The notes under the pieces: model-generated
Seen by the model: the letters and a program-made list of their open reading frames with translations, nothing else
The model's database searches: none
What the model was told of the DNA's origin: nothing
IMG/VR virus record: IMGVR_UViG_3300044796_000657
Coordinates: 310,001-374,000 of that record
Strand: one strand, 5' to 3'
Origin: a virus
Length of the DNA stretch: 64,000 nt
In this document: positions 2,095 to 52,990 of the stretch, one piece after another
Layout of the letters: each line of letters opens with the position of its first letter
How positions within the stretch are numbered: the first letter of the stretch is position 1
Position numbers and translations under genes: made by a program

Positions 2095-2161
2095 TTTGAA
2101 TCTCCAAAGTGTAACTAATTTACATAGATGAATTTATTTAAGTTTGATGAAGGATAATACG

Positions 2162-3097
2162 ATGATTGATGCGAAAGATATGCAAGAAAAGATGGCTCTC
2201 TGGGAAAAAACTGGCCTTCTCAAAGGTCTTTCTGACGATAAAAAATTGGCAGTTTCAATTTTGATGGAAAATCAAAGGGTTTTAAATGAAAGCCATGACG
2301 ATCAATCAGTGAAACGCTTCAATATACCTCTTGTTAGAAGATGGGTTGGTAATACCGTCTTATTTGATTTAGTGTCAGTCCAAGCATTGACAGAAGCCAA
2401 TTCTGAAATTTACCATTTTAGCAAAAACACGTTAATATCTTCGGAAGTCAAAACGACACCTCGAAAAATGAAAACGTCTTGGAGTCTTGAAGCCACTCAA
2501 TCATTACGATCATGTAACGGTATTGATGCCGAGATGGACTTGTTGAGCATTATAGCAGCAGAACTTACACTAGAAGTTGATCGTTCCGTTATTAGCGAAA
2601 TGCGAATTAACGCTGCTTTACATAAAAAGATAAACTTTAAGTATCTGTCAGGAACATATCAAGAAAAAAATGAAATTGTCAAACAGCAAATTTACAATGT
2701 CGGCAAAGAATCCAGTGAAATGTATGGTCGCTCTTTCCCCAATTGGATGATCTGCTCTCCTGAAATGAGAGAATCTGTCGGTAATAATACCAGCAAAAAA
2801 ACTCGTTCGTGGAATTTGGGGGTTCGGAAAGAAGGGGTCTTTGAGTTTGAAGATGCCACTATTAATATTTACAGCGATCCCCTTTTCCCTGTTGGTACAG
2901 TTCTCCTTGGATACAAAGGTGAACACGTATGCGACTCAGGTTATGTGTTTGCCCCGCACTTGATGGTTCAGGCATCACCCGTAGTTCTTGATCCTGATGA
3001 CTTTGTCCCACGACGACAGTTACTCAGCCAATTCAGCGGCAACCTCATTAATCCCACTTATTATTCCACTTTGGAAGTTAAAGATTTTCTCGCCTAA
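2162..3097 (+). CDS. T4 gp23-type major capsid protein family member
   Basis: About 311 residues. The C-terminal part (GYVFAPHLMVQASPVVLDP, then DDFVPRRQLLSQFS and PTYYSTLEVKDF) matches the characteristic end of T4-like major capsid/vertex proteins: P-h-x-h-x...VLDPxxFxPRxxhxxxxxK(x)hhxxxYYxxhxV. The middle (WSLEATQSLRSCNGIDAEMDLLSIIAAELTLEVDR) resembles the spine-helix region of that fold. T4 gp23 is about 520 residues, so this is a short member and could be a vertex or minor capsid paralogue. Start set at 2162 because AAGGA lies 7 nt upstream; the in-frame ATG at 2147 has none. Its stop overlaps the methyltransferase start (TAATG), implying translational coupling. Confidence 0.68.
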   Translation: MIDAKDMQEKMALWEKTGLLKGLSDDKKLAVSILMENQRVLNESHDDQSVKRFNIPLVRRWVGNTVLFDLVSVQALTEANSEIYHFSKNTLISSEVKTTPRKMKTSWSLEATQSLRSCNGIDAEMDLLSIIAAELTLEVDRSVISEMRINAALHKKINFKYLSGTYQEKNEIVKQQIYNVGKESSEMYGRSFPNWMICSPEMRESVGNNTSKKTRSWNLGVRKEGVFEFEDATINIYSDPLFPVGTVLLGYKGEHVCDSGYVFAPHLMVQASPVVLDPDDFVPRRQLLSQFSGNLINPTYYSTLEVKDFLA

Positions 3098-3882
3098 TGA
3101 GATATGAGCAAAAAGATGCGCTAGATAGGTTTTATACCAACCGTGAAACTGCCTCTCGTTGTGTATCGTTGCTTGATTTAACACAGTATGAATTGATTGT
3201 AGAACCATCAGCGGGGGATGGTTCTTTTGTGGATGCTATCAAAGTATCCCACTTGATTGCCTTGGACATCAACCCCGGTAGAGAAGATATTCAACAAGCC
3301 GATTTTTTTGACTTTACGACATCTATTGATGCTTCCAAAGTATTAGTCATAGGAAATCCGCCTTTTGGGAAACAAAACAGTCTGGCCTTAAAGTTCATCG
3401 CCCACGCTTCCAAGTGGGCGGATACAATTGCCTTCATTTTACCTTTGTCTTTTATGAAGCCATCGGTTCAAAATAAAATCAATCCGACATTTCATCTTTT
3501 TGTTTGTGAAGAGCTTCCGCCAATCAGCTTCTTATTTAATGGGGTGCCTTATGATGTGCCTTGCGTATTTCAGATTTGGCGAAAAGGTGAATTGCGAAAA
3601 CCGCAACGACCAGATACACCCATAGGGTTTGAATATACCAATTCCAATTATGGCAACGTTTGTGTGAGACGGGTTGGATATTATGCGGGCAAGGCATCCG
3701 ATGATATGACGAAAAACAAGGAATCTCATTTTTTCTTGAAAGTAGACACCAATAAGGTAGACACGGTTATTGCCGGGCTAAATCAACAAGTCTGGAATCA
3801 TAAAAACACCGTTGGGCCACGAACGGTATCTCGCTTCGATCTCAATCCCATTATTAATGGCATTCTCAAAGAAAATTGTTGA
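3097..3882 (+). CDS. Class I SAM-dependent DNA (adenine-N6-type) methyltransferase
   Basis: A 261-residue protein. The SAM-binding motif I appears as EPSAGDGSFVDAI and the catalytic motif IV as NPPFG, the [DNS]PP[YF] signature of N6-adenine and N4-cytosine amino-methyltransferases. The N-terminus RFYTNRETASRCV resembles methyltransferases that act without a separate specificity subunit. The residues after NPPFG (ALKFIAHASKWADTIAFILP) fit the following core strand. It overlaps the capsid gene stop by TAATG, an unusual partner for a modification enzyme. Base and target site are unknown, and a protein or RNA substrate is possible. Confidence 0.75.
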   Translation: MRYEQKDALDRFYTNRETASRCVSLLDLTQYELIVEPSAGDGSFVDAIKVSHLIALDINPGREDIQQADFFDFTTSIDASKVLVIGNPPFGKQNSLALKFIAHASKWADTIAFILPLSFMKPSVQNKINPTFHLFVCEELPPISFLFNGVPYDVPCVFQIWRKGELRKPQRPDTPIGFEYTNSNYGNVCVRRVGYYAGKASDDMTKNKESHFFLKVDTNKVDTVIAGLNQQVWNHKNTVGPRTVSRFDLNPIINGILKENC

Positions 3883-3907
3883 CAAGTGATATGGGATAGG
3901 TTATAGT
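3879..3907 (+). promoter_or_regulatory. Sigma70-type promoter of the SPFH pair
   Basis: TTGACA at 3879-3884, a 17-nt spacer, then TATAGT at 3902-3907. This is a near-consensus housekeeping promoter. It overlaps the end of the preceding methyltransferase gene and lies 46 nt before the first SPFH ATG. It contrasts with the TAAATA boxes seen before several other genes. Confidence 0.75.
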
Positions 3908-3917
3908 CTTTTGTAAT

Positions 3918-3937
3918 CCGGGTTCTTTCTACCCGGC
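3918..3937 (+). promoter_or_regulatory. 5' leader hairpin before the first SPFH gene
   Basis: CCGGGT and ACCCGG arms (about 3919-3924 and 3932-3937) with a 7-nt loop, sitting just downstream of the predicted transcription start. The AGGAG Shine-Dalgarno follows at once. No T-tract, so it is more likely an mRNA-stabilising or translation-modulating structure than a terminator. Confidence 0.45.
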
Positions 3938-3952
3938 ACACAGGAGAATCCC

Positions 3953-5563
3953 ATGAAGGATTGGATTGAGGCCAATGTCGGCAAGCTCATCGCTGCCGGT
4001 ATTGCCTTTGTACTGTTCGTGATTGTTGGTATCATCACTTACAGCAGTGTCCGCATCGACGTTCCGGCAGAACACATTGCCGTTTTGACACGGAATACCG
4101 GCGAAGACATCGATAACGGCGATGCGGTGGCACCTGATGCCAACCACAAAGGGCTGCAACTCGGTGTGTTAACCGAAGGCCGACACTTTTACAATCCGTA
4201 TTCGTGGTCGTCCAACGTCTACCCGATGATTACCATCCCTGACGGCAAGCTCGGCGTTCGCATCCGCCAATACGGGAAGAACCTTCCCTACGGCGACTTC
4301 CTTGCCACGCAGGAAGATCAGAAGGGTATCGTGCCCGAAGTGCTTCGCCCCGGACGCTATCCCATCAATGGCGTGATCAAGGGTGAAGAAGCCAAACGCC
4401 CCAAAAACGACTATGTGGAAATCATCGAGCTTTACACGCCGGTCACCATTCCCGCCGGATACCGTGGGGTGGTTGCCAATCTCGCCGGGCCGCTTCCCGA
4501 AAATCCCAACGTGATCCTCGTTCCAAAGGGTTGCCGTGGCGTTCAAGAGGAAACGCTCGATACGGGAACCTACTACCTGAACCCATACCTTCACCGTGTT
4601 AACGTTGTGGATTGCCGCTCGCAACGGTTCAATCTCGCCGAAACGGTAGACATGGGCTTTCCGAGCCGGGATGGATTTTGGGTGTCCCTCGACGGCATCA
4701 TCGAGTTCCGTGTCGATCCAGCCAAGGCCGCACATGTATTCGTCGTCTACAACGAAACCTCTAACGACAATGTCGCCGACTCCATCATCCACGACGAATT
4801 GATCCGCAAGGTCATCATGCCGAACGCCCGCTCATTCTGCCGACTGAAAGGGTCGGACAAGTCGGGCCGGGACTTCATCGGCGGCGAAACCCGGATTGAA
4901 TTCCAGAAAGATTTCCAAACGGCAATGGCGAAATCGTGCCGTCTCGAAGGCGTGGATGTCGTCCAAGCACTGATTACGAAGATTAACCCGCCGCAAGCAA
5001 TCGCCAAGCCGGTTCGGGATCGAGAAGTCGCCCACCAAAAGCAACAGCAATACGTGGAGCAGAAAAAGCAGCAAGTGGCCGAAGCGATGCTGGCGACGGA
5101 AAAGGCATTGATCGCCCAACGTCAAGCACTGGTCACAACGGAAACGACTGTGATACAGAACACGACCACTGCGAAGCAAAACCAGCAGGTGAAAGTCACC
5201 GAAGCAAATCGGGACTTGTCGGTTGGCAAGGCCGATCTCGAAGCAGCGAAGGATAAAGCCTCAGCGGTTCTTGCCGGGAAGAAAGCCGAAGCCGGGGTTA
5301 TCGACTTCCAAAATCTCGCTGATGCTGCCGGTTGGAAAACGGCGGTAGACGCATTGGGAGGCGATGGCGAAGCCTATGCCCGGTTCGTTCTCTACCAGAA
5401 GTTAGCACCGGCATTCAAGAAGATGATGGTTAACACTGGCGATAGCCCACTCATGAAAATCTTTGAGGGCTTCAACAAGGATAACCAAAAACCGGCACCA
5501 CCGGCAGGCGCACCGAAACCGGTTGCTGCATTGCCGGAACCGAAACCGCTCGAAAAGAAATAA
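3953..5563 (+). CDS. SPFH/band-7 (stomatin/flotillin-like) membrane protein 1
   Basis: A 536-residue protein anchored by one N-terminal membrane helix (about residues 11-30). It continues with repeated beta modules containing GRxxxNPY motifs (GRHFYNPYSW, GRYPING, GTYYLNPYLH), then an SPFH/PHB core (DGFWVSLDGIIEFRVDP). A long Ala/Glu/Lys/Gln coiled coil follows at about 355-450, and the tail is Pro-rich (PAPPAGAPKP). SPFH proteins oligomerise on membranes as scaffolds that organise microdomains or regulate proteases. ATG follows CACAGGAGAATCCC. The gene is visibly G+C-richer at third positions than its surroundings and forms a cassette with the following paralogue. Role in a phage is unknown; membrane protection or remodelling is inference. 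Confidence 0.85.
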   Translation: MKDWIEANVGKLIAAGIAFVLFVIVGIITYSSVRIDVPAEHIAVLTRNTGEDIDNGDAVAPDANHKGLQLGVLTEGRHFYNPYSWSSNVYPMITIPDGKLGVRIRQYGKNLPYGDFLATQEDQKGIVPEVLRPGRYPINGVIKGEEAKRPKNDYVEIIELYTPVTIPAGYRGVVANLAGPLPENPNVILVPKGCRGVQEETLDTGTYYLNPYLHRVNVVDCRSQRFNLAETVDMGFPSRDGFWVSLDGIIEFRVDPAKAAHVFVVYNETSNDNVADSIIHDELIRKVIMPNARSFCRLKGSDKSGRDFIGGETRIEFQKDFQTAMAKSCRLEGVDVVQALITKINPPQAIAKPVRDREVAHQKQQQYVEQKKQQVAEAMLATEKALIAQRQALVTTETTVIQNTTTAKQNQQVKVTEANRDLSVGKADLEAAKDKASAVLAGKKAEAGVIDFQNLADAAGWKTAVDALGGDGEAYARFVLYQKLAPAFKKMMVNTGDSPLMKIFEGFNKDNQKPAPPAGAPKPVAALPEPKPLEKK

Positions 5564-5614
5564 CCCTCACCCCACTCTTACTTTCCCCTTAACATTGAAA
5601 CAGGAGATTGCGTC

Positions 5615-7207
5615 GTGAACTGGAAACTCAAATTCGGCTTGCTTGGATTGCTCGCCGTGATGGTGATCTATGTCGGCGTGGATTGGCTTTGGAACCGGGT
5701 ACAAGTTCCAGACGGCCACAGCCTGCAACTGCGATACAAAGGTCCGATGTTCTTCGGTAAACACAATCAAGCCGAAGCAGGCAATTGGGCCAAAGAAGGC
5801 GAAGTCGGCATTTTGGAAAAACTCCGTGGGCCGGGCCGACACTTCTACTGCCCGATCTGGTGGGAACGTACGATTGTGCCGGATGTGATCGTCAAGCCGG
5901 GTGAAGTCGGCTTGGTGACGTGCAAGTTGGGTGCCTCCTTGCCAGAAGGCGAATTCCTCGTAGACGGCGAAATCGGGGATACGAAATTCAAGGGAACGCT
6001 TCGGAAGGTATTGGGGCCGGGTCGCTACCGGGTTAACCCTTACGGCTACGAAGTGAAAGTTGTTGGCACCCACACCATTGACTCTGGCAACGCCAAGAAG
6101 CAATCTGGTTGGGTTAACATTCCAACAGGATACGTCGGCGTCGTTTCCAACTTGGCTGACAATCCGATTACTCACCAGAAAACCGGCATTCAAGACAAGG
6201 TTCTGCCTCCCGGCCTGTATCCGATGAATCCGGCTGAACAACACGTGGACGTTGTGGAAATCGGCTTCCACGAAACCCACATTGACATTACCAGCGGTGG
6301 AAAGAACACGCTGGAAATGGCCAAGGCGGATGAAGAAGGAAATAACCTCGATGCGACATTGACCGGGGGTATTAACTTCCCATCAGCGGACGGGTTCAGC
6401 ATCACGATGGACTATACGGCAGTGTGGGGGCTGATGCCAAATCAAGCCCCGAATGCTATCCGCAAGTTCGGCAACGTCGGCCTTGTGGAGCAGAAGGTGG
6501 TGTTGCCACAAATCGAATCGATCTGCCGCAACAATGGTTCCGAATATCCGGCAGTGAAGCTGTTGGTCGGCGAACAGCGAGAAATCTTCCAGAACAAGAC
6601 TCTGACTGAATTCCAAGCTGTTCTGGCAGCAAAAGACATTACCTTACTCTACGGATTGGTACGGCACATCTATATTCCAACAGATGTTCGCCGTCCTATT
6701 CAAACGGCATACATTGCCGACGAGTTGAAGCTGACACGGGAAGTGGAACAGCTAACGGCCAAAAAGGAAGCCGAATTGCGGGAAGCAGAGCGAAAGGTTG
6801 AACAGGCAACACTCGAAACCAACGCTCTGACGACGAAGTTGGTTGCCGAAAAATTGGCAGACGGTGACAAGATAGTTGCCGAAACGGACGCCGAAACCCG
6901 GAAGCTGGTTGCCACAATTAACAAGCAAACCGCCGAATTGAAGGCGCAAGCGACACTTGTGGCAGGGCAAGCGGAAGGTGAAGGCAAGATGGCTATCGAG
7001 ACGGCGAAAGCCAGCAAGTTCAAGATGGCTGTGACCGCCTTTGGAACACCCGCTGCCTACAATAATTGGGTGTTCGCTACCGCTCTGCCCGATGGATTGG
7101 AATTGAACCTGTTCTATTCGGGCACCGGAACCCTGTGGACGGACTTGAACGGCGGTAAGTTCAACATTAACGTGCCAGCACCGGCAGCAGAAGCTCCGAA
7201 GAAGTAA
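5615..7207 (+). CDS. SPFH/band-7 membrane protein 2 (paralogue)
   Basis: A 530-residue protein with the same plan as its upstream neighbour: N-terminal membrane helix (about residues 7-26), GR[HY]FYCP/GRYRVNPYG modules, SPFH core (DGFSITMDYTAVWGL), an Ala/Glu-rich coiled coil (about 375-460, with repeated AETDAETRKL-type units) and a short Pro/Ala tail. Start is GTG at 5615, preceded by CAGGAGATTGCGTC; no closer ATG exists. The two proteins are distinct in sequence, so they are old paralogues likely to form a hetero-oligomer in the manner of HflK/HflC. Same G+C-rich codon use as partner 1. A strong terminator follows directly, making the pair a self-contained transcription unit. Confidence 0.85.
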   Translation: MNWKLKFGLLGLLAVMVIYVGVDWLWNRVQVPDGHSLQLRYKGPMFFGKHNQAEAGNWAKEGEVGILEKLRGPGRHFYCPIWWERTIVPDVIVKPGEVGLVTCKLGASLPEGEFLVDGEIGDTKFKGTLRKVLGPGRYRVNPYGYEVKVVGTHTIDSGNAKKQSGWVNIPTGYVGVVSNLADNPITHQKTGIQDKVLPPGLYPMNPAEQHVDVVEIGFHETHIDITSGGKNTLEMAKADEEGNNLDATLTGGINFPSADGFSITMDYTAVWGLMPNQAPNAIRKFGNVGLVEQKVVLPQIESICRNNGSEYPAVKLLVGEQREIFQNKTLTEFQAVLAAKDITLLYGLVRHIYIPTDVRRPIQTAYIADELKLTREVEQLTAKKEAELREAERKVEQATLETNALTTKLVAEKLADGDKIVAETDAETRKLVATINKQTAELKAQATLVAGQAEGEGKMAIETAKASKFKMAVTAFGTPAAYNNWVFATALPDGLELNLFYSGTGTLWTDLNGGKFNINVPAPAAEAPKK

Positions 7208-7220
7208 TCCGTGTCATGTT

Positions 7221-7248
7221 GCCGGGGTAGCAATACCCCGGCGTTTTT
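7221..7248 (+). terminator. Rho-independent terminator of the SPFH operon
   Basis: Perfect 9-bp stem GCCGGGGTA / TACCCCGGC with a GCAA tetraloop-like turn, followed by G and six T's. It begins about 13 nt after the stop of the second SPFH gene. Confidence 0.9.
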
Positions 7249-7273
7249 TCCACCTTCAATTTTAGGCTTCATC

Positions 7274-18600: not shown

Positions 18601-19346
18601 TGCATTTCGTTATAAGAAACAAAGATTTTATTTTCACAGAAACCGTATTGCCGGGCGATGATGTTCTTACATCCAATGGCGGTAAGGTATTTCAAGATTA
18701 CATCCAAGAAACTAAAGTTTTATGTGGGCCTTACTCTGAATGTAAATTTCCACAAAGTTACTTCGGCAACATCCGACCTTGGGATTACGAGCGGATTTTA
18801 GAATACGGGGACTTCGCTGCCAATCAAAAGGTTTTAGAATGCGGTGGGCTTCATAGCTATTTCGCTATTGCCACTTCCCAAAAAGTTAATCATTACACTT
18901 GTACTGATAGTTTTTATTGGGCGACTCGTGACTATGCTCAAAATCCACAATTACAAAGTCCTCAAGAGTGGTGTAAGTATTTGATTGGTAAAGGTCGTGG
19001 CAAACTTCACGCCGAAGAAGCCGACTTGCAATCCATGAAGTATGCCAACGAACAATTTGATAGAGTTGTCTGTATCAGTGTGATTGAGCATGTACACGAA
19101 GATCGCAAGGGTATTCTGGAAATGATGAGGGTTCTTAAGCCGGGCGGTTTATTGCTTTTGACAACTGAATACAATCCCACTTGGTCTAAGCCTTACGCTG
19201 AAACAGACGGCAGTTATTATCGTGTATATGATCAAAGTGACTTGAGTAATCTTTTGGCTGGTCTTGATGTTGAAGTAATGCAAGCCCAAGGTGGGGATGT
19301 TCGTGACGGGCAATTTACTACTACGTTCATACGGATCAGAAAATGA
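18600..19346 (+). CDS. Class I SAM-dependent methyltransferase
   Basis: 248 residues. The SAM-binding strand appears as NQKVLECGGLHSYFAIA. A UbiE/Methyltransf_11-type centre follows (FDRVVCISVIEHVHEDRKGILEMMRVLKPGGLLLLTTEY). The N-terminal 70 residues (NIRPWDYERILEYGDFA) resemble methyltransferases found in glycan clusters. Sandwiched by 1- and 4-nt overlaps between dNMP kinase and HldE, so it may modify a sugar product; substrate unknown. Confidence 0.75.
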   Translation: MHFVIRNKDFIFTETVLPGDDVLTSNGGKVFQDYIQETKVLCGPYSECKFPQSYFGNIRPWDYERILEYGDFAANQKVLECGGLHSYFAIATSQKVNHYTCTDSFYWATRDYAQNPQLQSPQEWCKYLIGKGRGKLHAEEADLQSMKYANEQFDRVVCISVIEHVHEDRKGILEMMRVLKPGGLLLLTTEYNPTWSKPYAETDGSYYRVYDQSDLSNLLAGLDVEVMQAQGGDVRDGQFTTTFIRIRK

Positions 19347-20752
19347 ATGTATCTGACATCATTAATAAGTTCAAAATTCAAAATGCCAAAACGAGACTGA
19401 GAATAGCAGTTATTGGTGATACGCTCGTTGATGAATACCGTTACGGCCAAGTCAACCGGATTTCGCCCGAATTTCCCGTTCCGATATTAACTTCCGAGTC
19501 AGACGCCAAGGAATCTTGTCCCGGTGGCGCTGCGAATGTATGCCATCAAATGACACACATGAACGCCGAAGTCTTTCTCGTAGGCTTTGTGGACAATGTC
19601 ACACGTAAATTGTACGGTCAGCAAACCTTCAATATTGACTACTGCGTTGATTTGCCAAGCGGCTTTGTACCAATCAAAGTTCGATTTTATGAAGGCGACT
19701 TTCCTCTCCTGCGATGGGATATTGAAAGTCCTAACTATGGCGAAAAAGATTTAAGTGAATTGAGACGAAAAATTCTCATTAATTTTGAATCTCTCATCAA
19801 AGAGGGATTGAGTGCGGTCATTATTAGTGATTATAATAAAGGCATCTTTGACGAAGCTACCGCTCGTTCTCTCATGCAATTATGTACTTATTACCGCATT
19901 CCTACTATCGTTGATCCCAAGAAACCACCAGTGAGCAAATGGTTCGGGGCTACAGTCATTAAGCCAAATGCGGCTGAAGCCAAGACGCTAACTGGTGAAT
20001 CTACTATTTCATCTCAATTGAGTAAATTATGTGAAAATGCTCATACGAGTATGATCACCCAAGGCGGCGACGGTGTTATTTGCCAAATTGGAAAAGAAAT
20101 TTTTGAATACATGTCCCCCGTACCACGATCTAAGGAGGTGAACAGTGTTATCGGGGCGGGGGACTGTTTTATAGCAATGTTAACTCTTGGGATGTCGCAC
20201 GGTATGACAACTCAAGAAGCTGTAGCATTGGCATTTGAAGCCGGTGCTGTTTACGTTAAAGCAAGACATAATAAACCAATTCATCTTAATGAAATACTCG
20301 CAAGAGTTGATGTTGAAGGCTCTCGTATCGTCAAAGCCGAAGAGTTAAACTTTAACAAAAACGAACGTATTGTTTTCACAAATGGTTGTTTTGACGTTAT
20401 TCATGCTGGTCACTTGGATACTTTGAAATTTGCCAAATGTCAAGGTGATCGATTGATTGTCGGTGTTAATTCGGATGCTTCTGTCAAGCGACTTAAGGGT
20501 GATAAGCGACCCATTTATGGACAAGATGAACGTGCTAGATTTTTAGCGTCAATGTATTTCGTAGATCATGTTGTGATTTTTGATGAAGATACACCAGCCG
20601 AATTGATTAATAAAATTCAGCCACACATTGTTGTTAAGGGCGGCGATTACTCTATTACGGATGTTGTTGCCGGTAATGCCAAAGTTGTTTTGTCGCCTCT
20701 CAGAAAAGGATACTCTTCAACTAATACAATTAATAAACTATCTGACGACTAA
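19343..20752 (+). CDS. hldE: Bifunctional heptose-7-phosphate kinase / heptose-1-phosphate adenylyltransferase
   Basis: 469 residues with both HldE (RfaE) domains. Residues about 20-320 form a PfkB/ribokinase fold (IAVIGDTLVDEYRYGQVNRISPE; PGGAANVCHQM; catalytic GAGD at 271-274). Residues about 340-469 form a nucleotidyltransferase domain (FTNGCFDVIHAGHLDTL with HxGH at 354-357; VKGGDY). It makes ADP-heptose from heptose-7-phosphate together with a phosphatase. The window also holds an HldD-like epimerase and several glycosyltransferases. GmhA and GmhB are not seen. ADP-heptose feeds LPS core synthesis and is also an immune-active metabolite; use by the phage is inference. Confidence 0.92.
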   Translation: MNVSDIINKFKIQNAKTRLRIAVIGDTLVDEYRYGQVNRISPEFPVPILTSESDAKESCPGGAANVCHQMTHMNAEVFLVGFVDNVTRKLYGQQTFNIDYCVDLPSGFVPIKVRFYEGDFPLLRWDIESPNYGEKDLSELRRKILINFESLIKEGLSAVIISDYNKGIFDEATARSLMQLCTYYRIPTIVDPKKPPVSKWFGATVIKPNAAEAKTLTGESTISSQLSKLCENAHTSMITQGGDGVICQIGKEIFEYMSPVPRSKEVNSVIGAGDCFIAMLTLGMSHGMTTQEAVALAFEAGAVYVKARHNKPIHLNEILARVDVEGSRIVKAEELNFNKNERIVFTNGCFDVIHAGHLDTLKFAKCQGDRLIVGVNSDASVKRLKGDKRPIYGQDERARFLASMYFVDHVVIFDEDTPAELINKIQPHIVVKGGDYSITDVVAGNAKVVLSPLRKGYSSTNTINKLSDD

Positions 20753-22500: not shown

Positions 22501-24165
22501 TTACCAACCAAATTCCTGTAAAAGTTTATGATGTGGTCTTTGTGTGTCGAACATCATTCTTGGCAACAAGTCAACATCTGGATCTAGATTGGCCAACAAA
22601 TCGCCCGTTTCAATACCAGCTTCCAATTCTTTCCACAATGCCTTAACGTCGTCACCCGAAAAACTCTTGTGAATGATATTAGCATCAGGCGTAGCACCGA
22701 TTGGCATTTCCCGGTTCAAAACGTCAGAGATGTACAATGCTATACTGAGGCAAATCACCAAGTCGTCATGCTTGTTCTTTTGTGCTTCGGCTCTTTGCTT
22801 TTCTTGATTGTAAATGAATGTTAACAATTCCCGAATAATACGAACGCTTCGAATCTTGACAAGACGATTCAACATACACGTTTGTAATGCTTCCATACAA
22901 ACTGGACGCAATACTTTATTCATGTTAACGCCGGGACGATCTCTAGTTGCCCCTTGCGTAAAGTAAAGGTTGTCATAACTCAATGAGTGTTCAAGTCGTT
23001 CACAAACAGCTTGGCCCGGTCCCATTGAGTTTTCCACAATAATCAAAGCATTGTTATAAAGTTTTCCCACATGCGCCAAAACTTGACTGAACTTATATGT
23101 CGGAATTGTCTTGGAATAAAATTCAGCCACTTGCGTTAACGTGGAAATGTCCATGACAATAAAGGCGCAGTTATCGCCTTCTTGTCCAACACCCATAGCG
23201 GCATCGGCAGTAATGAGATATTCACGACCGGATTTAGGCATTTCCCAAACCCACATCGCACCGGGTTCGTATTTTGCATTCGGAAGTTCGTCTTCTTTGA
23301 AGCTTTCTTCGGGGATGATGTCCCATTCACCCATCATCTTTTTAATTGGATTAGAGCATTGTTTTTCAAATTCTTTGATAACTTCACCGGGAATGTAAGT
23401 ATCACCGGAGCCGAGGAATGAACCTTCGTATTCCTGTGCGAAGCCTTTTTCGCCGATGTTAGCTCGTGTTCGCTTTTCCCATTCGGCATTGTTATAGTCG
23501 GGGTGTTCATGCCAGTCAATATGTACAACAAAAAACTGACTTCTCTTGTCAATAGCCTTTTGGTATTGTTCGTAGTACCAACCACCGACGCCACCGATAC
23601 CGTTAACCGTGGAGATGATAATAGCATTACCACCGGTTGAGAGCGTAGGATACATGCTCTTCCAGTGTTCTTCCATACCTTGAACGAACGCCGCTTCATC
23701 GATAATTAGATAAGTTAAAGCACGGGAACGAGCAGCGGCAGGAGTATAGAACCACATAACCGAACGAGTTTCAGCAAACTCTTTTTCGTGGTCGTTATCG
23801 TTGTTCATTTCCGGACGAAGCCATTCCGGAAGTTCATTCTTGGCATTAGCTACCGTTTTACCTACAGCTTTAGCTTCACGGTCAGTTTTAGAAGCAATGA
23901 GAATACGCTGATCGGTGTAGAAAATGCACTTCCATAACATCCACATAGATGTTACAGTGGTCAGACCGGCTTGACGGAATTTCTTAACAATGCTAAACTG
24001 ATTAGATTCAAAGTCAGAGATAACTCGATTTTGGAAGTCGTATAGAACGAATGGTACCAAACCCTTTTTCGGGTGGGTAATCTGTAAGTACTTCTCAGAA
24101 AAGTACTTGAAACTATTTCGACATCTGATAAACTCTCTAAGTTGCTCGTCATTTAATTGGCCCAT
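22501..24165 (-). CDS. Terminase large subunit (T4 gp17-like)
   Basis: 554 residues. The packaging ATPase has a deviant P-loop FRQAGLTT (residues 63-70; T4 has RQLGKTT), Walker B/DE motif YLIIDEAAF (DE 156-157), and motif C ISTVNG. The C-terminal RNase-H-like nuclease shows acidic residues in LITADAAMGVGQEGDNC, IIVENSMGPGQA and KHDDLVICLSIAL. It translocates DNA into proheads and cuts the concatemer. No small subunit or portal gene is recognised nearby. The hydrophobic residue in the usual Lys position is a known variation in this family, where an upstream Lys (KKFRQ) may substitute. Confidence 0.92.
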   Translation of the reverse strand: MGQLNDEQLREFIRCRNSFKYFSEKYLQITHPKKGLVPFVLYDFQNRVISDFESNQFSIVKKFRQAGLTTVTSMWMLWKCIFYTDQRILIASKTDREAKAVGKTVANAKNELPEWLRPEMNNDNDHEKEFAETRSVMWFYTPAAARSRALTYLIIDEAAFVQGMEEHWKSMYPTLSTGGNAIIISTVNGIGGVGGWYYEQYQKAIDKRSQFFVVHIDWHEHPDYNNAEWEKRTRANIGEKGFAQEYEGSFLGSGDTYIPGEVIKEFEKQCSNPIKKMMGEWDIIPEESFKEDELPNAKYEPGAMWVWEMPKSGREYLITADAAMGVGQEGDNCAFIVMDISTLTQVAEFYSKTIPTYKFSQVLAHVGKLYNNALIIVENSMGPGQAVCERLEHSLSYDNLYFTQGATRDRPGVNMNKVLRPVCMEALQTCMLNRLVKIRSVRIIRELLTFIYNQEKQRAEAQKNKHDDLVICLSIALYISDVLNREMPIGATPDANIIHKSFSGDDVKALWKELEAGIETGDLLANLDPDVDLLPRMMFDTQRPHHKLLQEFGW

Positions 24166-45249: not shown

Positions 45250-45789
45250 TTACCCAATGGCGTTTTCCGCCGCAATCAATTGTCTATACGATGTTAAGTT
45301 ATCACACCATTTTATAAATTTTTCGTATGACATTTTGCCTTTAGCCCAATTGCATGTTTTGCAACACGGCAAAGAATTTTCGGTGGTATATCCTTGACCG
45401 GGTACTTTTTGATCTATCCCTAACCAATGATAATATCCCCAATTGGTAATGTTAGTTTTGTATAAACGATCAGGATTTGTACCGCAATAATGACAATTGC
45501 TAGAAGTTATGTCTTTGAATTCTTTCAAAGTCAAAGACATATAATTTCTCTTGCTATAAATATTAAATAATGCTTCAAGGCCACTTTGACCTTTGGGTTT
45601 ATTTTTACATTTTTTGCATACTGTATCTCTTTTTATATGACTTCTAGTTGATATTTTTATTGCATCGCAATTTTTACAATGAATTTTCCATACACTGGTC
45701 TTGCGATTAAATTCCATTTGTTTGATTTCAATAAATTCATCAACTATCCAATTTTTTAAATTATCAATCGTTTGTATGAATTTACTCAT
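45250..45789 (-). CDS. HNH endonuclease
   Basis: 179 residues from ATG 45789, overlapping the actin-like gene stop by ATGA. An N-terminal zinc ribbon (CKNCDAIKIS...VCKKCKNKPKGQSGLE) is followed by an HNH core: CHYCGTNP, LGIDQKVPGQGYTTENSLPCC and CNWAKGKMSYEKFIKWC. This GID...N-x-x-x-C-C-x-x-CN layout is common in phage homing HNH enzymes. A 70-nt gap with no gene separates it from the duplicated-domain gene. Confidence 0.8.
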   Translation of the reverse strand: MSKFIQTIDNLKNWIVDEFIEIKQMEFNRKTSVWKIHCKNCDAIKISTRSHIKRDTVCKKCKNKPKGQSGLEALFNIYSKRNYMSLTLKEFKDITSSNCHYCGTNPDRLYKTNITNWGYYHWLGIDQKVPGQGYTTENSLPCCKTCNWAKGKMSYEKFIKWCDNLTSYRQLIAAENAIG

Positions 45790-46787
45790 TGTAAAGCATT
45801 CTCTGCTGCCATTAAGCATCCTTTGCCGACACTAAATAAGTGATCTTCGGGACGCTTAACTTCACCAACAGGAATCGACCAATCCGCTTCTTTGATACCT
45901 TGTTTGAACAATTCAACAAAGCCGGGAGGACTCGCAGTACCACCACCCAAAATAACATCTAAAGGCTGACCGGGCACCGCTTTGGCACCAGCATCAACAA
46001 TCGCCTTCTTGATTGCGCTCGTCGTCTTTTGGATCAAGATTTCATATTGACTCTTAATTGCTCTTTCAACTAATGAAGTCGGCGTTTTGGTCAAATCGAT
46101 CTTCGTCTTTTCTTGATTGATGACTGTCGGACTTTCGCCGCACGCCTTTGCTGCCATCTTGTCAATCCAGTCGCCACTATTCACAAGCGACATTTGAAAT
46201 ACCGGTTGAGCAAAAATGGAATAACACAAGTTAACCATACCAGCACCGAAACTGATACCAACACCGGTATGCATCTTATTACCTAATTCGGCAAAAACCA
46301 ATGCTAAGGCTTCGTTGATTGGAAACGCTTGAAGTCTCTTATTGTTGACGTTGTACGCCTTGAAAATAGAGAGCAAGACGTTACTGTGAAAGTCCGCATC
46401 CGTTTCGGTGTTGATAGCGTTGGCAGGAACCGAATAGTAAAGAATTTCTTTGTCTTTTTCAATTTCGCCGATCAGAGAGTGAATCATGATCTTGAGAATT
46501 TCAAAAGCATTACGTTCTTTGGGGTTCAAACACCCATCAGCCATAGGACGCTTCAGATTTAAAAGCGGAATAGTATAAGCCATATCGATAGCCGGTTGAC
46601 CGACTACGTAAGCCACTTTATCACGCTCAATCATCTTAACTTTATCTTTGAGCATATTGAACATGAAACGATTTTCCAACGGCAATTCAATGAATGCATT
46701 TACCGTCTTCTTGCTCTTGATTTCATTCGTTTCATTACGCTTGCTACAAATAAGGTTGTAGGTACCCGCATCAAATCCGATTGCCAT
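45786..46787 (-). CDS. Actin-like ATPase (ParM/MreB superfamily)
   Basis: 333 residues. Phosphate-1 loop MAIGFDAGTYNLICSKR, phosphate-2 loop TGVGISFGAGMVNLCYS and adenosine motif DVILGGGTASPPGFVELF give the actin/Hsp70 nucleotide-binding set in order. AAGGTGAAG precedes ATG. Filament-forming ParM-like proteins segregate plasmids or position large phage DNA. No obvious ParR partner or centromere-like repeat array lies beside it; the adjacent gene is an HNH enzyme. Confidence 0.82.
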   Translation of the reverse strand: MAIGFDAGTYNLICSKRNETNEIKSKKTVNAFIELPLENRFMFNMLKDKVKMIERDKVAYVVGQPAIDMAYTIPLLNLKRPMADGCLNPKERNAFEILKIMIHSLIGEIEKDKEILYYSVPANAINTETDADFHSNVLLSIFKAYNVNNKRLQAFPINEALALVFAELGNKMHTGVGISFGAGMVNLCYSIFAQPVFQMSLVNSGDWIDKMAAKACGESPTVINQEKTKIDLTKTPTSLVERAIKSQYEILIQKTTSAIKKAIVDAGAKAVPGQPLDVILGGGTASPPGFVELFKQGIKEADWSIPVGEVKRPEDHLFSVGKGCLMAAENALQ

Positions 46788-46884: not shown

Positions 46885-47226
46885 ATGGGTGGCATGACAA
46901 GAAGTCCCGAATCGTGGTGGGAGTATTTTAAATCCCTTTTTAATATCAAAAATTATTATATCGATGGCACCGTTACGGTATGTGCTGGTTTCCATCAAAT
47001 TGAAATTCCTACGGTTACTAGCAATCCATGTTCTGTTTTTCTTAGCATCGAAGAGCCAGATAGCGCAACGACAACTTGTGTAGGCGATCTCAATTGGGCT
47101 ACTGCTAAGGTTCAACTCAACGGCTTCACTTTATACGCCAACATCAAATCTAACACTTGTACTATCAAATACGTTATTCAATATGACTGCGATAATTCTA
47201 ATCCTCAAAGCCCCATTGGTATATGA
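46885..47226 (+). CDS. Hypothetical beta-rich protein
   Basis: 113 residues: MGGMTRSPESWWEYFKSLFN helix, then strands with five Cys (VTVCAGFHQIEIPTVTSNPC; TTTCVGDLNWATAKVQLNGF; SNTCTIKYVIQYDC). A small Ig-like or lectin-like virion protein is plausible; not recognised. Overlaps the pyruvyltransferase start by ATGA, at the head of the glycan cluster. Confidence 0.52.
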   Translation: MGGMTRSPESWWEYFKSLFNIKNYYIDGTVTVCAGFHQIEIPTVTSNPCSVFLSIEEPDSATTTCVGDLNWATAKVQLNGFTLYANIKSNTCTIKYVIQYDCDNSNPQSPIGI

Positions 47227-48212
47227 AAACTGTAACTGTTTTGGGTTGGTATGGCAAAAGCAATTGTGGTGATGAAAGCTACAAAATGGCTTTTCCTGCC
47301 GTGTTCAAAAATTATAAATTCAATTTCGTCAACAAGATTACCGATCACAATAGTGATGCTTACATTTTGGGTGGCGGCGATGTCTTGGCCCCTAGTTTCT
47401 TGAATCAATTAGTTAACGTCAAAAAACCAAAACACATTATTTCTGTTTCTGCTAACGAAAAAGTAGATCCGGAACTCTTGAAGGGTTACGCCAACATCTT
47501 TGTACGTGAAAAACAGTCGTTGGATATTTTGACCAAAAAGGGGGTCAAGGCTTCTTATGCCCCCGATGTTGCTTTCGCCTTATCAGGCGATCCAGTTCGT
47601 GGTCTTGAATTGATGCGAAATCACTTCGTTGAACAGAAACGGGATATGTACGAACGGCGAATCGTTGTTGTTATCAATGGCTTCTTGGCGGAAGATCACG
47701 CCAACGGCTTTGATGTACGGCGTGCTTATAACTTTCAAGACTTGACATATAAGTTGTCTCACGTTCTGGATCATACGAACGCCAGTTTCGTTTTTGTTCC
47801 ATTTGGTCAAGAATTGCCGTGGGATGATCGGGTAACAAATATGTGGATTGCGAGTAAAGCAAAATTCTGGAAAAAGAATTTATGTATCAGCGAATCCAAC
47901 GTTCAAAATGTTCTGGATATTATCTCAAGTGCTGATGCAATAGTCTCAACAAGATTACATTCTACCATTTTTGCTATGACAACAAAAACGCCTATTGTAG
48001 ACATTACTCACAATCATAAAAATCGTTGGTTGTTGGAAACAGTTGATAAAAATCATTTTTCTGTTAATTATCGTGCGATTGATGAAGGTGCTTTGAAATT
48101 AAAAATAAATGATTTGATTTCAAATCGTAATATACATGCAAAAGAACTCTCCATTTTGCTAGATAAACAAAAGGAAATCTTGGGAGGGTTGAGTAATGTA
48201 TGTCTCGTTTGA
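47223..48212 (+). CDS. Polysaccharide pyruvyl transferase family protein
   Basis: 329 residues. KTVTVLGWYGKSNCGDESYKMAF at the N-terminus, AYILGGGDVLAPSFLNQL, KHIISVSANEKV, YANIFVREKQSLDIL and ADAIVSTRLHSTIFAM form the CsaB/WcaK-type pattern: GxxNxGDE start, GGGD, RE-x-S, and TRLHS near the C-terminus. Enzymes add pyruvate ketals to surface sugars using PEP. First enzyme of a run of glycan genes; overlaps the following GT4 gene by 17 nt. Confidence 0.82.
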   Translation: MKTVTVLGWYGKSNCGDESYKMAFPAVFKNYKFNFVNKITDHNSDAYILGGGDVLAPSFLNQLVNVKKPKHIISVSANEKVDPELLKGYANIFVREKQSLDILTKKGVKASYAPDVAFALSGDPVRGLELMRNHFVEQKRDMYERRIVVVINGFLAEDHANGFDVRRAYNFQDLTYKLSHVLDHTNASFVFVPFGQELPWDDRVTNMWIASKAKFWKKNLCISESNVQNVLDIISSADAIVSTRLHSTIFAMTTKTPIVDITHNHKNRWLLETVDKNHFSVNYRAIDEGALKLKINDLISNRNIHAKELSILLDKQKEILGGLSNVCLV

Positions 48213-49473
48213 TCGGCATAACGTAATTACTGCTGTCTCTGAAGTTCCATTCAATTCCAATGGCCAAAGTGTAGTTCGAATCCACATTAACAAGGGTATG
48301 GATCTGAACCAAATCGTGGGGCGACTCTTGAGTACTAAACCAAAAAAACAGATAAAAGATTTGAAGGTAGCAGCAATATGCAATTGGGGCGATGCCTGCG
48401 GTATCGCCACTTACAGTAAATTTTTGTTCGATGAAATCAAGAAGAAGGTAGCTGATCTTCATGTATTTTCCGAAATCATACTCGAAGAACTGCCAGAAGA
48501 GGCTAATGTAACACGCTGTTGGAAGCGTGGTCAAAATCCATCAAAGCTTCTGGAGCAACTCAAAAAATACGATCCGGATTTTGTCATTATCCAGCACGAA
48601 TTTGGCATTTTTCCAAAAGCGGGATATTTCTTACAATTGCTTCAAGGACTTGAACAATATCCTTATGTGTTAACTTTGCACTCTGTATATGAACATCTTG
48701 ACAAAGCAGTATGTACTTCGGCTATTAAACACATTGTCGTCCATACCGAAGAAGGCAAAGAGGTTCTTAAGAAGACTGGGAATAATAACGATATTTTTGT
48801 AGTGCCTCACGGATGTGTTAGCATTCCTCCAGCAGAACGCATAGAATTATGGAATATTTTTCAAACCCCCTACGCTATCGTGCAATTCGGATTTGGTTTT
48901 TATTACAAAGGCGTTGATACGATTTTGGAAGCTATTGCTATCCTCAAAAAAACCAACTACGAAAAATACAAAGAACTCTTCTACTGCTATCTTTGCAGCG
49001 AGAATCCCCATGCCAATGCCATCCATACAAACTATTACAACTTTTTGATGGACAAGGTGAAAGAGTTGGATATTTCGGAGAACGTTGCCATTATTCGCAA
49101 GTTCCAAACCGAGCAGACAATTAACCATTACTTACGAACAGCTAAACTCGCAATCTTCCCATATCGTAGCGATCCGAACAATGTTGTTTATGGTGCTTCC
49201 GGTGCCAGTCGTATTGCTATGGCCAATGGTATTCCTGTTATTGTCGGCAAGAACCATCAGTTTGATGATTTGGAAGGTGTTTTGCCAAGAGCCGGTACAC
49301 CACAAGAATTGGCTAATGAAATTGACAAGATTTTCTCTAACGACAAACACCGCAAAGCAGTTATTGATCGTTCGTTAAAGTATATCGAAAATACGACTTG
49401 GAGCAAATGTGCCGATAAGTATTTGGATCTTTACGAAAAAGTATTACCCACCAACATCTTCGCCAAAATTTGA
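48196..49473 (+). CDS. GT4-type glycosyltransferase
   Basis: 425 residues. About 55 N-terminal residues precede the GT-B fold, which starts DLKVAAICNWGDACGIATYSK. Acceptor-side FVIIQHEFGIFP follows, and the nucleotide-sugar half has FGFYYKGVDTILEAIAIL, FPYRSDPNNVVYGASGASRIAMANGIPVIV in place of the canonical EGF...EAMACG[TL]PVI. The acid in the E-x7-E position is altered. GGGAGGGTTGAGTA precedes ATG. Donor unknown. Confidence 0.75.
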   Translation: MYVSFDRHNVITAVSEVPFNSNGQSVVRIHINKGMDLNQIVGRLLSTKPKKQIKDLKVAAICNWGDACGIATYSKFLFDEIKKKVADLHVFSEIILEELPEEANVTRCWKRGQNPSKLLEQLKKYDPDFVIIQHEFGIFPKAGYFLQLLQGLEQYPYVLTLHSVYEHLDKAVCTSAIKHIVVHTEEGKEVLKKTGNNNDIFVVPHGCVSIPPAERIELWNIFQTPYAIVQFGFGFYYKGVDTILEAIAILKKTNYEKYKELFYCYLCSENPHANAIHTNYYNFLMDKVKELDISENVAIIRKFQTEQTINHYLRTAKLAIFPYRSDPNNVVYGASGASRIAMANGIPVIVGKNHQFDDLEGVLPRAGTPQELANEIDKIFSNDKHRKAVIDRSLKYIENTTWSKCADKYLDLYEKVLPTNIFAKI

Positions 49474-49689
49474 TAATAATTCCGTTGGACTATCAAAGTC
49501 CGGTATGATGAATTGAGTGCTCTCAACAGGGTCAATCTTCTTGAGAGCTATCGGACTATGCGGTGTTGCTCCGATGCTCAATGAACCATCTTGATTCAAA
49601 GTGATCGTTAAATTCAAGTTAACCGTTATTTCGCCTTGAACGGTTTGAACTCTCTCAGTGATAATTTGTGATTTGATGACCTGAACCAT
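49444..49689 (-). CDS. Hypothetical small protein
   Basis: 81 residues. Beta-rich (KSQIITERVQTVQGEITVNLN), then SIGATPHSPIALKKIDPVESTQFIIPDFDSPTELLSNFGED. A GTAAATA box lies 6 nt before ATG in the end of the upstream gene, and there is no Shine-Dalgarno. Overlaps the convergent GT4 gene by 30 nt. Function unknown. Confidence 0.48.
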   Translation of the reverse strand: MVQVIKSQIITERVQTVQGEITVNLNLTITLNQDGSLSIGATPHSPIALKKIDPVESTQFIIPDFDSPTELLSNFGEDVGG

Positions 49690-49698
49690 ACACCGTAT

Positions 49699-50658
49699 TT
49701 ACTTAGCAGTAGGCCATTTTACCATTATATCATCAAGCGATTGAAGAATTTCCTTCGCTGTCAATTCTGTAATACAAGGTTTTGATATTTGAGTATGATG
49801 ACATTTGTGACATTCACCCCAATTATAACACGGCCCACAATCCCATCCTTCATCACGATGTTTCTGAATTAAGTTCCACTTCTCATAATACTTGCCATAT
49901 ACCTTACCATCGGCCCATGAGAAAATTCCGACCATTGGAATTCCTAGACCACCAGCAATATGAAATGCGGCGCTGTCTACACTTATGACATAATCAGCAG
50001 CTCCGACCAATGCCATGAATTGTTTGTTATTTTTGCCGTGTAGCACTTTTCCATCAAAACCGGGAATGGCCCTTGAGTGAATTCCATAGTAGCTTAATCC
50101 CCGCTCTTGTAAACCTTTGCAGACTTGATCAATTTGCTCAACAGTTAAGTTTTTGCTGGAAATGGCCGATATGGGAGCGAAGCAAACTTTGGCACCTTGC
50201 GTTAGTTCTTTTGCTTCGGCTAACTCAGGTTCGCTAATTTTCATATGCATATTATGCCGAGTTAATTCTAATCCGCACCAATTGGCCCAAATATCGCTTC
50301 GGTGTGGTGCGGAATACGGAGAGGCTATGGCTTCAATTCTACCGCATATAGTTGTTGTGTCGTAATGAATAATCAATTTACTCATGTCGTAGTTGTTAAA
50401 GTCAACGACTTCGTCTACGAATGGATGTCCTTCAATTAGGGACATAAATTGTGGTGGACAACCGAATATAACTTTGATGTCTGGATTCAATAATTTGAAA
50501 TCTTCAAAAATCATCCTATGCATGAGGATGTCACCAATGCCACCGGTTCCTCGCATAATGAATACGGTTTGTCGTCTATCATAATAATCTCTAAGAGACC
50601 ATCGTTTCTTCATTGGGGGAATTCGATGGAGTCCAGAAGCAAGTCGTAATGTTTTCAT
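49699..50658 (-). CDS. GT9-like (heptosyltransferase-type) glycosyltransferase
   Basis: 319 residues. IMRGTGGIGDILMHRMIFEDF replaces the usual hRxxxIGDhhhhxP of GT9. PDIKVIFGCPPQFMSLIEGHP matches the strand-helix after it. The C-terminal half has VISVDSAAFHIAGGLGIPMVGIF, the SxDSGxxHhAxxxxxPxhxhF motif. A zinc-like cluster CGPCYNWGECHKCHHTQISKPC near the end resembles the Cys motif found in some GT9 proteins (GT9 Cx2C). Likely transfers heptose or a related sugar; hldE and hldD-like genes are in the same window. Confidence 0.72.
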   Translation of the reverse strand: MKTLRLASGLHRIPPMKKRWSLRDYYDRRQTVFIMRGTGGIGDILMHRMIFEDFKLLNPDIKVIFGCPPQFMSLIEGHPFVDEVVDFNNYDMSKLIIHYDTTTICGRIEAIASPYSAPHRSDIWANWCGLELTRHNMHMKISEPELAEAKELTQGAKVCFAPISAISSKNLTVEQIDQVCKGLQERGLSYYGIHSRAIPGFDGKVLHGKNNKQFMALVGAADYVISVDSAAFHIAGGLGIPMVGIFSWADGKVYGKYYEKWNLIQKHRDEGWDCGPCYNWGECHKCHHTQISKPCITELTAKEILQSLDDIMVKWPTAK

Positions 50659-50672
50659 ACTAATCTAATTGA

Positions 50673-51302
50673 ATGTCGTACACGAATTACTTAAAAATAA
50701 AAGATAAGGTCTGTATTTGTTCTGAAGGCCACAACCCGGAATACCTTATACAGCTTCGAATATTATTGCCAACCCTAACCAAAGAGTTTCCGGAAATTGA
50801 TTTTACATTTGCCTGCCGAGCAGAAAATGTTCATTATATTCGTGGGGCTATTCCTATGGAAATTTACAATCAAACTAAAGGGGACTACGCATTCTCATAC
50901 GAAATCATTTATGATGCTCACTTCAAAGAGCATCCAATAGTCAGTATGTTAAACAATTCTAATATCACTCCAATTAAGATTAAGTCTTCTAGCCCCCGTG
51001 GACATATCGCCTACATATCAGCGATAGGCGACTTTCCTAATTCTAATTTGACAGATCAACAAATCAAAAAAGCATGTTCTTTTGCTGCGAATAAAGGATT
51101 CAAAACCAAAATCATTCAAGACAAATTAACTTTGAATGAAATTCAGAGGATGGTCATAGGGGCTGCGTTCGTTATCGGAACATCAAATGAGTTATTCTAT
51201 GAGGCTGTAGCAGCAGAAGCTCCAACTGCCTTGATTCCAACAGGCCCACAAGCCGAAGACATTTACCGAATGCTCGTACAATCGCCAAATGTTTTACCAT
51301 AA
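50673..51302 (+). CDS. GT9-like fold protein, reduced
   Basis: 209 residues. VCICSEGHNPEYLIQLRILLPTLTKEFPEIDFTFACRA resembles the N-terminal half of GT9, and QRMVIGAAFVIGTSNELFYEAVAAEAPTALIPTGPQ the C-terminal sugar-binding motif with the Asp-Ser-Gly replaced by GTSNE. Shorter than full heptosyltransferases. It may be a degenerate glycosyltransferase. Divergent from the 49699-50658 gene with a 14-nt gap. Confidence 0.5.
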   Translation: MSYTNYLKIKDKVCICSEGHNPEYLIQLRILLPTLTKEFPEIDFTFACRAENVHYIRGAIPMEIYNQTKGDYAFSYEIIYDAHFKEHPIVSMLNNSNITPIKIKSSSPRGHIAYISAIGDFPNSNLTDQQIKKACSFAANKGFKTKIIQDKLTLNEIQRMVIGAAFVIGTSNELFYEAVAAEAPTALIPTGPQAEDIYRMLVQSPNVLP

Positions 51303-51327
51303 AGAAAAAAATGATGGTAAATGAGCC

Positions 51328-51334
51328 TAAATAA
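51328..51334 (+). promoter_or_regulatory. CTAAATA late-type promoter with ordinary leader
   Basis: CTAAATA 38 nt before ATG 51373, leaving a leader of about 30 nt with AAGGAG. It shows the same box used as a promoter ahead of a conventional ribosome site. Confidence 0.45.
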
Positions 51335-51372
51335 AAGTGAGCTTATAACTTTTACATCCAAGGAGAGAACTC

Positions 51373-51954: not shown

Positions 51955-51965
51955 CTTGCCAAAAA

Positions 51966-51998
51966 TAAAAAAAAGCCCCGCAAAGCGGGGCTTTTTTT
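51966..51998 (+). terminator. Rho-independent terminator
   Basis: GCCCCGC-AAA-GCGGGGC hairpin followed by seven T's; A-rich on the 5' side. Ends 10 nt before the next CTAAATA box. Confidence 0.92.
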
Positions 51999-52007
51999 AT
52001 TTAACGT

Positions 52008-52014
52008 CTAAATA
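52008..52014 (+). promoter_or_regulatory. T4-late-like CTAAATA box, 4 nt before ATG
   Basis: CTAAATA then AAAC and ATG at 52019, directly after a strong terminator. No Shine-Dalgarno. Confidence 0.6.
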
Positions 52015-52018
52015 AAAC

Positions 52019-52270
52019 ATGCTAGGATTCAAATTGTGGATAGAAGCGAAAGCCGCTCCTCTGATTATCAGTAGACGCAATGAATATGACGATTTTCCGT
52101 ACATCGTTGTTGCGTTCCCTAGCGGTGCCCGTTGGAAATATATTTTCCCTAATCAGCACACGATGGAAGAATATTTGTATCGATACAGTCGGAACGTTGG
52201 CAGATTAGTTTCCAAGATTAAAGACGACGATACTGTTAAACAAGAGCAATTACCTCTTCCACAGAGTTAA
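52019..52270 (+). CDS. Small protein with FKLWIEA N-terminal tag
   Basis: 83 residues: MLGFKLWIEAKAAPLIISRR, the cleanest example of the recurrent F-K-x-W-I-E-A tag. A short basic body follows (GARWKYIFPNQHTMEEYLYRYSRNVGRL). Only the CTAAATA box and 4 nt precede the start. Its 3' end overlaps the convergent sulfotransferase gene by 21 nt. Candidate internal head protein; function unknown. Confidence 0.6.
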   Translation: MLGFKLWIEAKAAPLIISRRNEYDDFPYIVVAFPSGARWKYIFPNQHTMEEYLYRYSRNVGRLVSKIKDDDTVKQEQLPLPQS

Positions 52271-52986: not shown

Positions 52987-52990
52987 CAGT

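What the first reader, a model, noticed from the sequence alone, without database searches (positions are those of the whole stretch)
3879..7248. Self-contained two-gene SPFH membrane-scaffold cassette in a phage
Seen: consensus sigma70 promoter, leader hairpin, two distinct SPFH/band-7 proteins each with one N-terminal membrane helix, repeated NPY/GR modules and coiled coil, then a strong terminator. Codon third positions are much richer in G/C than around. Known: HflK/HflC and flotillins form large membrane rings controlling proteases or microdomains; SPFH proteins are rare in phages. Inference: acquired, host-like expression, possibly a membrane-protection, superinfection-exclusion or protease-control system.
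Basis: partly seen in the sequence, partly recalled or inferred. Interest (0 to 1): 0.8.

Follow-up and report, generated by a model that had tools for sequence, protein, structure and literature searches.

The report
Phage-borne planctomycete membrane-scaffold gene pair
Several giant phages whose hosts are probably planctomycete bacteria have, more than once, taken over a bacterial two-gene unit for membrane-anchored SPFH scaffold proteins with extra repeated wall modules, probably to manage the host's membrane during infection.

Summary
Two adjacent genes (A 3953-5563, B 5615-7207) encode 536- and 530-aa SPFH/Band-7 proteins with one N-terminal membrane helix, a strong promoter-like site before A and an intrinsic terminator after B. 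The window lies in a 430-kb virus record with a Gp23-type capsid gene and a terminase. The pair is not phage-specific: it is an undescribed two-gene unit of Planctomycetota (about 10% of 294 sampled genomes), always in the order A-B, and it also sits in at least three other large phage contigs (355, 527 and 60 kb). In the tree the phage copies are nested among planctomycete ones and do not form one clade (AU p = 0.0003), so they were captured more than once. Both proteins carry a triplicated SPFH1-type module before the core, an order like the eukaryotic major vault protein, but with no sequence match to it. In one phage the pair leads into a DUF350-PspA cluster, a known membrane-stress arrangement. 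Best reading: a hetero-oligomeric, membrane-anchored periplasmic dome used for membrane maintenance; mechanism unproven. SPFH proteins are not rare in phages, but this paired, multi-module kind was found in no annotated phage record.

The parts
3879..3907 (+). sigma70-type promoter-like site TTGACA-N17-TATAGT
   Evidence: 11/12 match, only such + strand site in the window; activity not tested
3908..3946 (+). leader hairpin CCGGGT-loop-ACCCGG; the outer stem pairs with the Shine-Dalgarno AGGAG
   Evidence: RNA fold -17.7 kcal/mol, z -2.6; prediction only
3953..5563 (+). gene A, 536 aa: TM helix, three SPFH1-type modules, SPFH2, long coiled coil
   Evidence: Band_7 E 6.3e-27; AF2 model pLDDT 78; 39-64% identity to 31 homologues
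3986..4051 (+). gene A membrane helix, residues 12-33
   Evidence: hydropathy and AF2 helix 2-33; positive-inside bias in 24 of 32 homologues, reverse in 3
4058..4636 (+). gene A modules 1-3 (residues 36-97, 96-166, 163-228); the third is the start of Pfam Band_7
   Evidence: hhalign between modules E 4e-14, 2e-9, 1e-9
4994..5434 (+). gene A long helix / coiled coil, residues 348-494
   Evidence: AF2 helices 348-467 and 472-494, low confidence beyond about residue 390
5615..7207 (+). gene B, 530 aa (GTG start): same architecture as A, 25% identical to it
   Evidence: Band_7 E 7.2e-22; AF2 model pLDDT 78; paralogy with A
5621..5689 (+). gene B membrane helix, residues 3-25
5702..6280 (+). gene B modules 1-3 (residues 30-94, 93-160, 168-222)
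   Evidence: modules 2 and 3 match modules 2 and 3 of A at E 8e-19 and 2e-18; module 1 is the most diverged
6680..7081 (+). gene B long helix / coiled coil, residues 356-489
   Evidence: AF2
7220..7249 (+). intrinsic terminator, 10-bp stem plus U run
   Evidence: z -4.8

Best explanation
A and B are a paralogous pair of SPFH proteins captured from a planctomycete. Shown by computation: adjacency, shared architecture (N-terminal membrane helix, three tandem SPFH1-type modules, SPFH2, long coiled coil), bacterial origin by more than one transfer, and purifying selection. Inferred: the two proteins alternate in a large ring or dome anchored in the host inner membrane with the SPFH part on the periplasmic side, as HflK/HflC do; the two extra modules make the wall taller, and the coiled coils close the top. 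During the infection cycle of a very large phage this dome most likely organises or stabilises the host membrane, supplementing or replacing the host's own complex. I judge the dome about 0.7 likely and the membrane-maintenance role about 0.4.
For: Order A-B on one strand in all 27 bacterial loci whose contig runs past A (one with B split in two ORFs) and in five viral contigs, while flanks are unrelated: the two proteins work together. Fold matches to prohibitin, HflK/C, erlin, stomatin and flotillin complexes, all rings or cages. N-terminal positive-inside bias in A and B. Phage copies keep 75-78 of 81 (A) and 89-93 of 95 (B) columns invariant in planctomycetes, and third codon positions differ 2-3 times more than first and second between the window and L003: selection for function in the phages. 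In phage G001 the pair is followed on the same strand by a repeat/TM protein, DUF350, an unknown gene and PspA/IM30; Band-7/PspA and DUF350/PspA operons are established membrane-stress modules (PMC11237479) and the SPFH protein YdjI recruits PspA to the membrane in B. subtilis (PMC8581546).
Against: The window's own record has no PspA, DUF350 or FtsH-type peptidase, and the other phages lack PspA and DUF350, so the PSP link rests on one of four phages. PspA acts on the cytoplasmic face whereas the SPFH part is predicted periplasmic, so a direct contact would need a membrane partner. The dome and its topology are not modelled as a complex. The AF2 coils are of low confidence. In viral contig L007 gene A is cut short, an OrfB-type transposase gene follows and B is absent, so the pair is dispensable at least there. 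Planctomycete function is unknown, so nothing can be carried over from the host side.
Confidence: 0.45

Rival explanations
1. Protease-control decoy: the phage pair mixes into or competes with the host SPFH/FtsH complex, shielding phage membrane proteins from degradation or redirecting FtsH.
For: HflK/HflC are an adjacent SPFH pair with a similar layout and modulate FtsH (PMC12624060); fold matches include the FtsH-HflKC complex 7wi3.
Against: No HflK or HflC family model is reached (NCBIfam 0 hits); no FtsH-type peptidase in the record; the bacterial pair is not linked to ftsH or any other conserved neighbour.
Confidence: 0.2
2. Counter-defence or superinfection exclusion: the phage-made dome blocks a host membrane-linked defence, or changes the membrane so that later phages cannot inject.
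For: Repeated independent capture of a host gene pair fits an arms-race gene; self-contained cassettes with their own terminators.
Against: No match of A or B to any PADLOC defence model; no genes conserved next to the bacterial pair.
Confidence: 0.12
3. Virion component: A and B are packaged or sit in an internal virion membrane or injection apparatus.
For: The pair lies one gene downstream of the capsid gene in the window; SPFH proteins appear in virion mass spectrometry of Erwinia, RaK2-like and Vi01-like phages at low counts.
Against: Own promoter and terminator; bacterial homologues without phage genes; in G001 and G004 the pair is tens to hundreds of kb from the capsid gene; low counts in those proteomes fit carry-over of membrane.
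Confidence: 0.1
4. Passenger DNA: a recent accidental import without a role in this phage.
For: Host-like codon usage unlike the rest of the window, with no AGA/AGG; the pair is lost or broken in L007.
Against: Intact frames, conserved columns, sister copy in G001 adapted to phage composition (GC3 0.28/0.32) and still intact; several independent captures.
Confidence: 0.13

Closest known systems
HflK/HflC pair (SPFH3 subfamily)
   Same: Two adjacent paralogous SPFH genes, N-terminal membrane helix, coiled coil, predicted periplasmic SPFH part; 24-subunit alternating cage known for HflK/C
   Different: No HflK/HflC model hit; three SPFH1 modules instead of one; no ftsH link
Major vault protein (MVP)
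   Same: Order of parts: tandem small beta modules, SPFH-like shoulder, long cap helix; Foldseek matches over 560-650 columns, E 1e-11 to 1e-7, also to the isolated MVP repeat region 3gf5 for B
   Different: No sequence-profile match to MVP and no Pfam vault family; TM-scores low (0.13-0.33); membrane helix present, three modules instead of about nine
Prohibitin / stomatin / erlin complexes
   Same: Best sequence-profile hits of A in the PDB (prohibitin 1 E 6e-6, stomatin 2e-4) and top fold hits
   Different: Those have a single SPFH1 module and about 270-340 residues
phrog_200 'lipoprotein' and SPFH proteins of RaK2-like, Vi01-like and Vibrio phages
   Same: SPFH in large phages; Vibrio Ackermannviridae (547-548 aa) and the 642-kb phage LR756502 (631 aa, about four modules) also have several modules
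   Different: Single genes, one Band_7 per genome where tested, 22-26% identity to A
Band-7/PspA/DUF350 membrane-stress operons (PSP, YdjI)
   Same: Phage G001 joins the pair with DUF350 and PspA/IM30
   Different: Window phage has neither PspA nor DUF350

Membership tests
SPFH / Band_7 superfamily | Band_7 domain above the curated cut-off | tested here: met
   95 and 79 bits against 23.6; all 32 A and 31 B homologues
SPFH / Band_7 superfamily | N-terminal membrane segment and C-terminal coiled coil | tested here: met
SPFH / Band_7 superfamily | Assembly into membrane rings | not testable with these tools
   no complex prediction available
HflK/HflC | HflK and HflC family models | tested here: not met
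   NCBIfam: 0 families for A and B
HflK/HflC | Two adjacent paralogous SPFH genes | tested here: met
HflK/HflC | FtsH partner | tested here: inconclusive
   none in the phage record; host FtsH not examined
Major vault protein | Pfam vault repeat / MVP shoulder families or sequence homology | tested here: not met
Major vault protein | Tandem beta modules followed by SPFH-like shoulder and cap helix | tested here: met
Phage shock (PSP) system | PspA/IM30 encoded with the SPFH gene | tested here: not met
   absent from the window's record; present in sister phage G001
phrog_200 | Profile match | tested here: met
   E 2e-25 and 4e-14, over the SPFH/coil part only
Known anti-phage defence systems | PADLOC model match | tested here: not met
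   0 families for A and B

The most novel reading that the evidence does not exclude
The pair builds a membrane-anchored, vault-like cage, taller than the known SPFH domes, that encloses a patch of host membrane or periplasm; giant phages of planctomycetes have captured it repeatedly to make a dedicated protected membrane compartment during infection.
Probability: 0.12. Interest if true: 0.85.

Novelty: new variant of a known kind. Interest (0 to 1): 0.52.

Why it matters
It names an uncharacterised, always-paired SPFH family of Planctomycetota, bacteria noted for unusual membranes, and shows that giant phages have taken it several times. The triplicated SPFH1 module gives a bacterial protein with the part order of the eukaryotic vault, so it bears on how vault-type cages could arise from SPFH proteins. 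The phage cassettes, and the one joined to DUF350 and PspA, give direct candidates for testing whether large phages carry their own membrane-maintenance machinery.

Tried and rejected
Bacterial chromosome: rejected, the record is viral with Gp23-type capsid and terminase genes. Plasmid-borne relatives: none. Search with the single sequence of A in viral contigs found nothing; profiles were needed. Defence system: no PADLOC match. HflK/HflC membership: no model hit. MVP homology by sequence: no, including a profile of the modules alone, which hits prohibitin 1 weakly. Single capture by the phages: rejected (AU p 0.0003), with the caution that branches are long and that L004's place is unsupported. 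High GC3 as an expression effect of the phage: unlikely, the capsid gene does not share it. dS could not be estimated between phage copies (saturated).

Full report
What is there. The window is bases 310001-374000 of a 430,229-bp virus record. A Gp23-type capsid gene lies at 2144-3097 and a T4-type terminase at 22501-24165. Both proteins hit Pfam Band_7 well above cut-off, and they are the only two Band_7 genes in the record. An 11/12 sigma70-type site with a 17-nt spacer ends 45 bases before the start codon; it is the only such site on the + strand of the window, and about 0.1% of 100-bp segments have one. A stable hairpin whose outer stem covers the Shine-Dalgarno follows. After B comes a 10-bp stem with a U run.

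The unit outside this phage. The pair was found in viral contigs of 355, 527 and 60 kb (G001, G004, G002), two nearly identical contigs of 49-61 kb (L009, L010) and, broken, in a 30-kb relative of these (L007). G001 and G004 carry Gp23 capsid genes, and G001, G002 and G004 terminase relatives, so these are large phages; the viral nature of L007/L009/L010 is less sure. One scan of 84,980 bacterial and archaeal species gave 29 loci, 28 Planctomycetota and one Verrucomicrobiota. In all 27 whose contig continues past A, B follows on the same strand, often overlapping by 4 bases; in L022 B reads as two ORFs. Neighbours are not conserved. Of 294 genomes sampled evenly from the phylum, 30 have a full match (E below 1e-100). 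So this is an accessory two-gene unit of planctomycetes.

Origin of the phage copies. A tree of A+B (1060 columns) places the window with G001 (100/99) and then with a planctomycete MAG (99/97), while G004 groups with Rhodopirellula and relatives (98/99). One phage clade is rejected, AU p = 0.0003. At least two captures are therefore supported; a transfer back from phage to bacterium is not excluded. G002 has an unsupported place. The window copies have GC3 0.64/0.61 in a stretch averaging about 0.40 and use no AGA/AGG, and the capsid gene does not share this usage. In G001 the same genes have GC3 0.28/0.32, like their neighbours. The simplest reading is a rather recent import into the window's phage, from an unsampled donor or donor-like phage, and a long residence in G001. 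That the phages infect planctomycetes is inferred from these genes only.

Selection. Planctomycete-invariant columns are kept in the phage copies (76/81 in A and 92/95 in B for the window). Between the window and G001, differences at codon positions 1, 2 and 3 are 0.32, 0.20, 0.69 for A and 0.31, 0.23, 0.65 for B. The proteins are held by selection although synonymous sites are saturated.

Architecture. The part before the Pfam domain consists of further copies of the SPFH1 subdomain: consensus PxGxxGVV...KGIQxxVLxPGRYxxNPY. Profile-profile comparison links the six modules, most pairs at E 1e-6 or better, weakest for B module 1. Modules 2 and 3 of A are closest to modules 2 and 3 of B, so the triplication came before the A/B split. 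AF2 models (pLDDT 78 each) show a membrane helix, three beta modules, SPFH2 and a helix of over 100 residues. Fold searches give prohibitin, erlin, HflK/C, stomatin and flotillin complexes, and major vault protein over 560-650 columns. The vault resemblance is one of part order and local fold: TM-scores are low and no sequence profile reaches MVP or Pfam vault families. Positive-inside bias puts the SPFH part in the periplasm, more clearly for A (24 of 32 against 3) than for B (17 of 31 against 2).

Other phages. SPFH proteins are recurrent in phages and giant viruses, and some have been seen in virion proteomes at low counts. Vibrio Ackermannviridae and the 642-kb phage LR756502 have single SPFH genes with three and about four modules. 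The paired form was found in no INPHARED record.

How it probably works. The constant pairing and the family's known behaviour argue for an alternating hetero-oligomeric dome. For function, the best lead is G001: behind A and B on the same strand lie a repeat protein with a membrane helix, a DUF350 protein, an unknown gene and PspA/IM30. Band-7/PspA and DUF350/PspA neighbourhoods are known bacterial envelope-stress modules (PMC11237479), and the SPFH protein YdjI brings PspA to the membrane (PMC8581546). The window phage lacks PspA, DUF350 and FtsH-type peptidase genes, so any partner would be the host's. In the window and L008, and by eye in L004 and L009, a terminator-like hairpin follows B directly (the scan of L004 did not list its site). 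The unit travels as a cassette. In L007 A is cut and B missing next to an OrfB-type transposase gene, so it can be lost.

Verdict. Observation confirmed. Interpretation partly supported: acquired and self-contained, yes; membrane maintenance is the best but unproven role; exclusion and protease control have less support. It is a new variant of a known kind: a planctomycetal, paired, triple-module SPFH system repeatedly captured by giant phages.

Noticed in passing
window 2144-3097: The only Gp23 capsid match in the 430-kb record covers just model positions 139-355 and the ORF begins with TTG; the N-terminal third of the capsid protein was not seen. Relatives G001 and G004 have full-length ones, and G004 two further partial copies.
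   Followed up: partly
window 47223-58654: Cluster of sugar/LPS genes: pyruvyl-transferase-like, heptosyltransferase-like, several glycosyltransferases and an ADP-heptose-epimerase-like gene; 19343-20752 combines PfkB kinase and cytidylyltransferase like HldE.
   Followed up: no
window 45786-46787: Actin-like protein with weak similarity to MamK and BeeR.
   Followed up: no
window 62327-63331: COOH-NH2 ligase-like gene with GC3 0.67, the only other GC3 outlier as strong as the SPFH pair.
   Followed up: no
L003 9595-12069: Phage G001: SFSGG-repeat protein with membrane helix, DUF350, unknown 185-aa protein and PspA/IM30 behind the SPFH pair; a phage-borne envelope-stress-type cluster.
   Followed up: partly
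L003 4205-5242 and L008 174-1304: Two giant phages share a fusion of a flavoprotein (Dfp-like) domain and an M23 peptidase domain near the SPFH pair.
   Followed up: no
L004 12208-14124: JAB-domain protein (weak Pfam match) next to a gene that looks ThiF-like by eye, reminiscent of PRTRC-type cassettes, in a phage contig.
   Followed up: no
L007 918-3010: Gene A ends after about 255 matching residues, an OrfB-type transposase gene follows and B is missing; neighbours are shared with L009/L010.
   Followed up: partly
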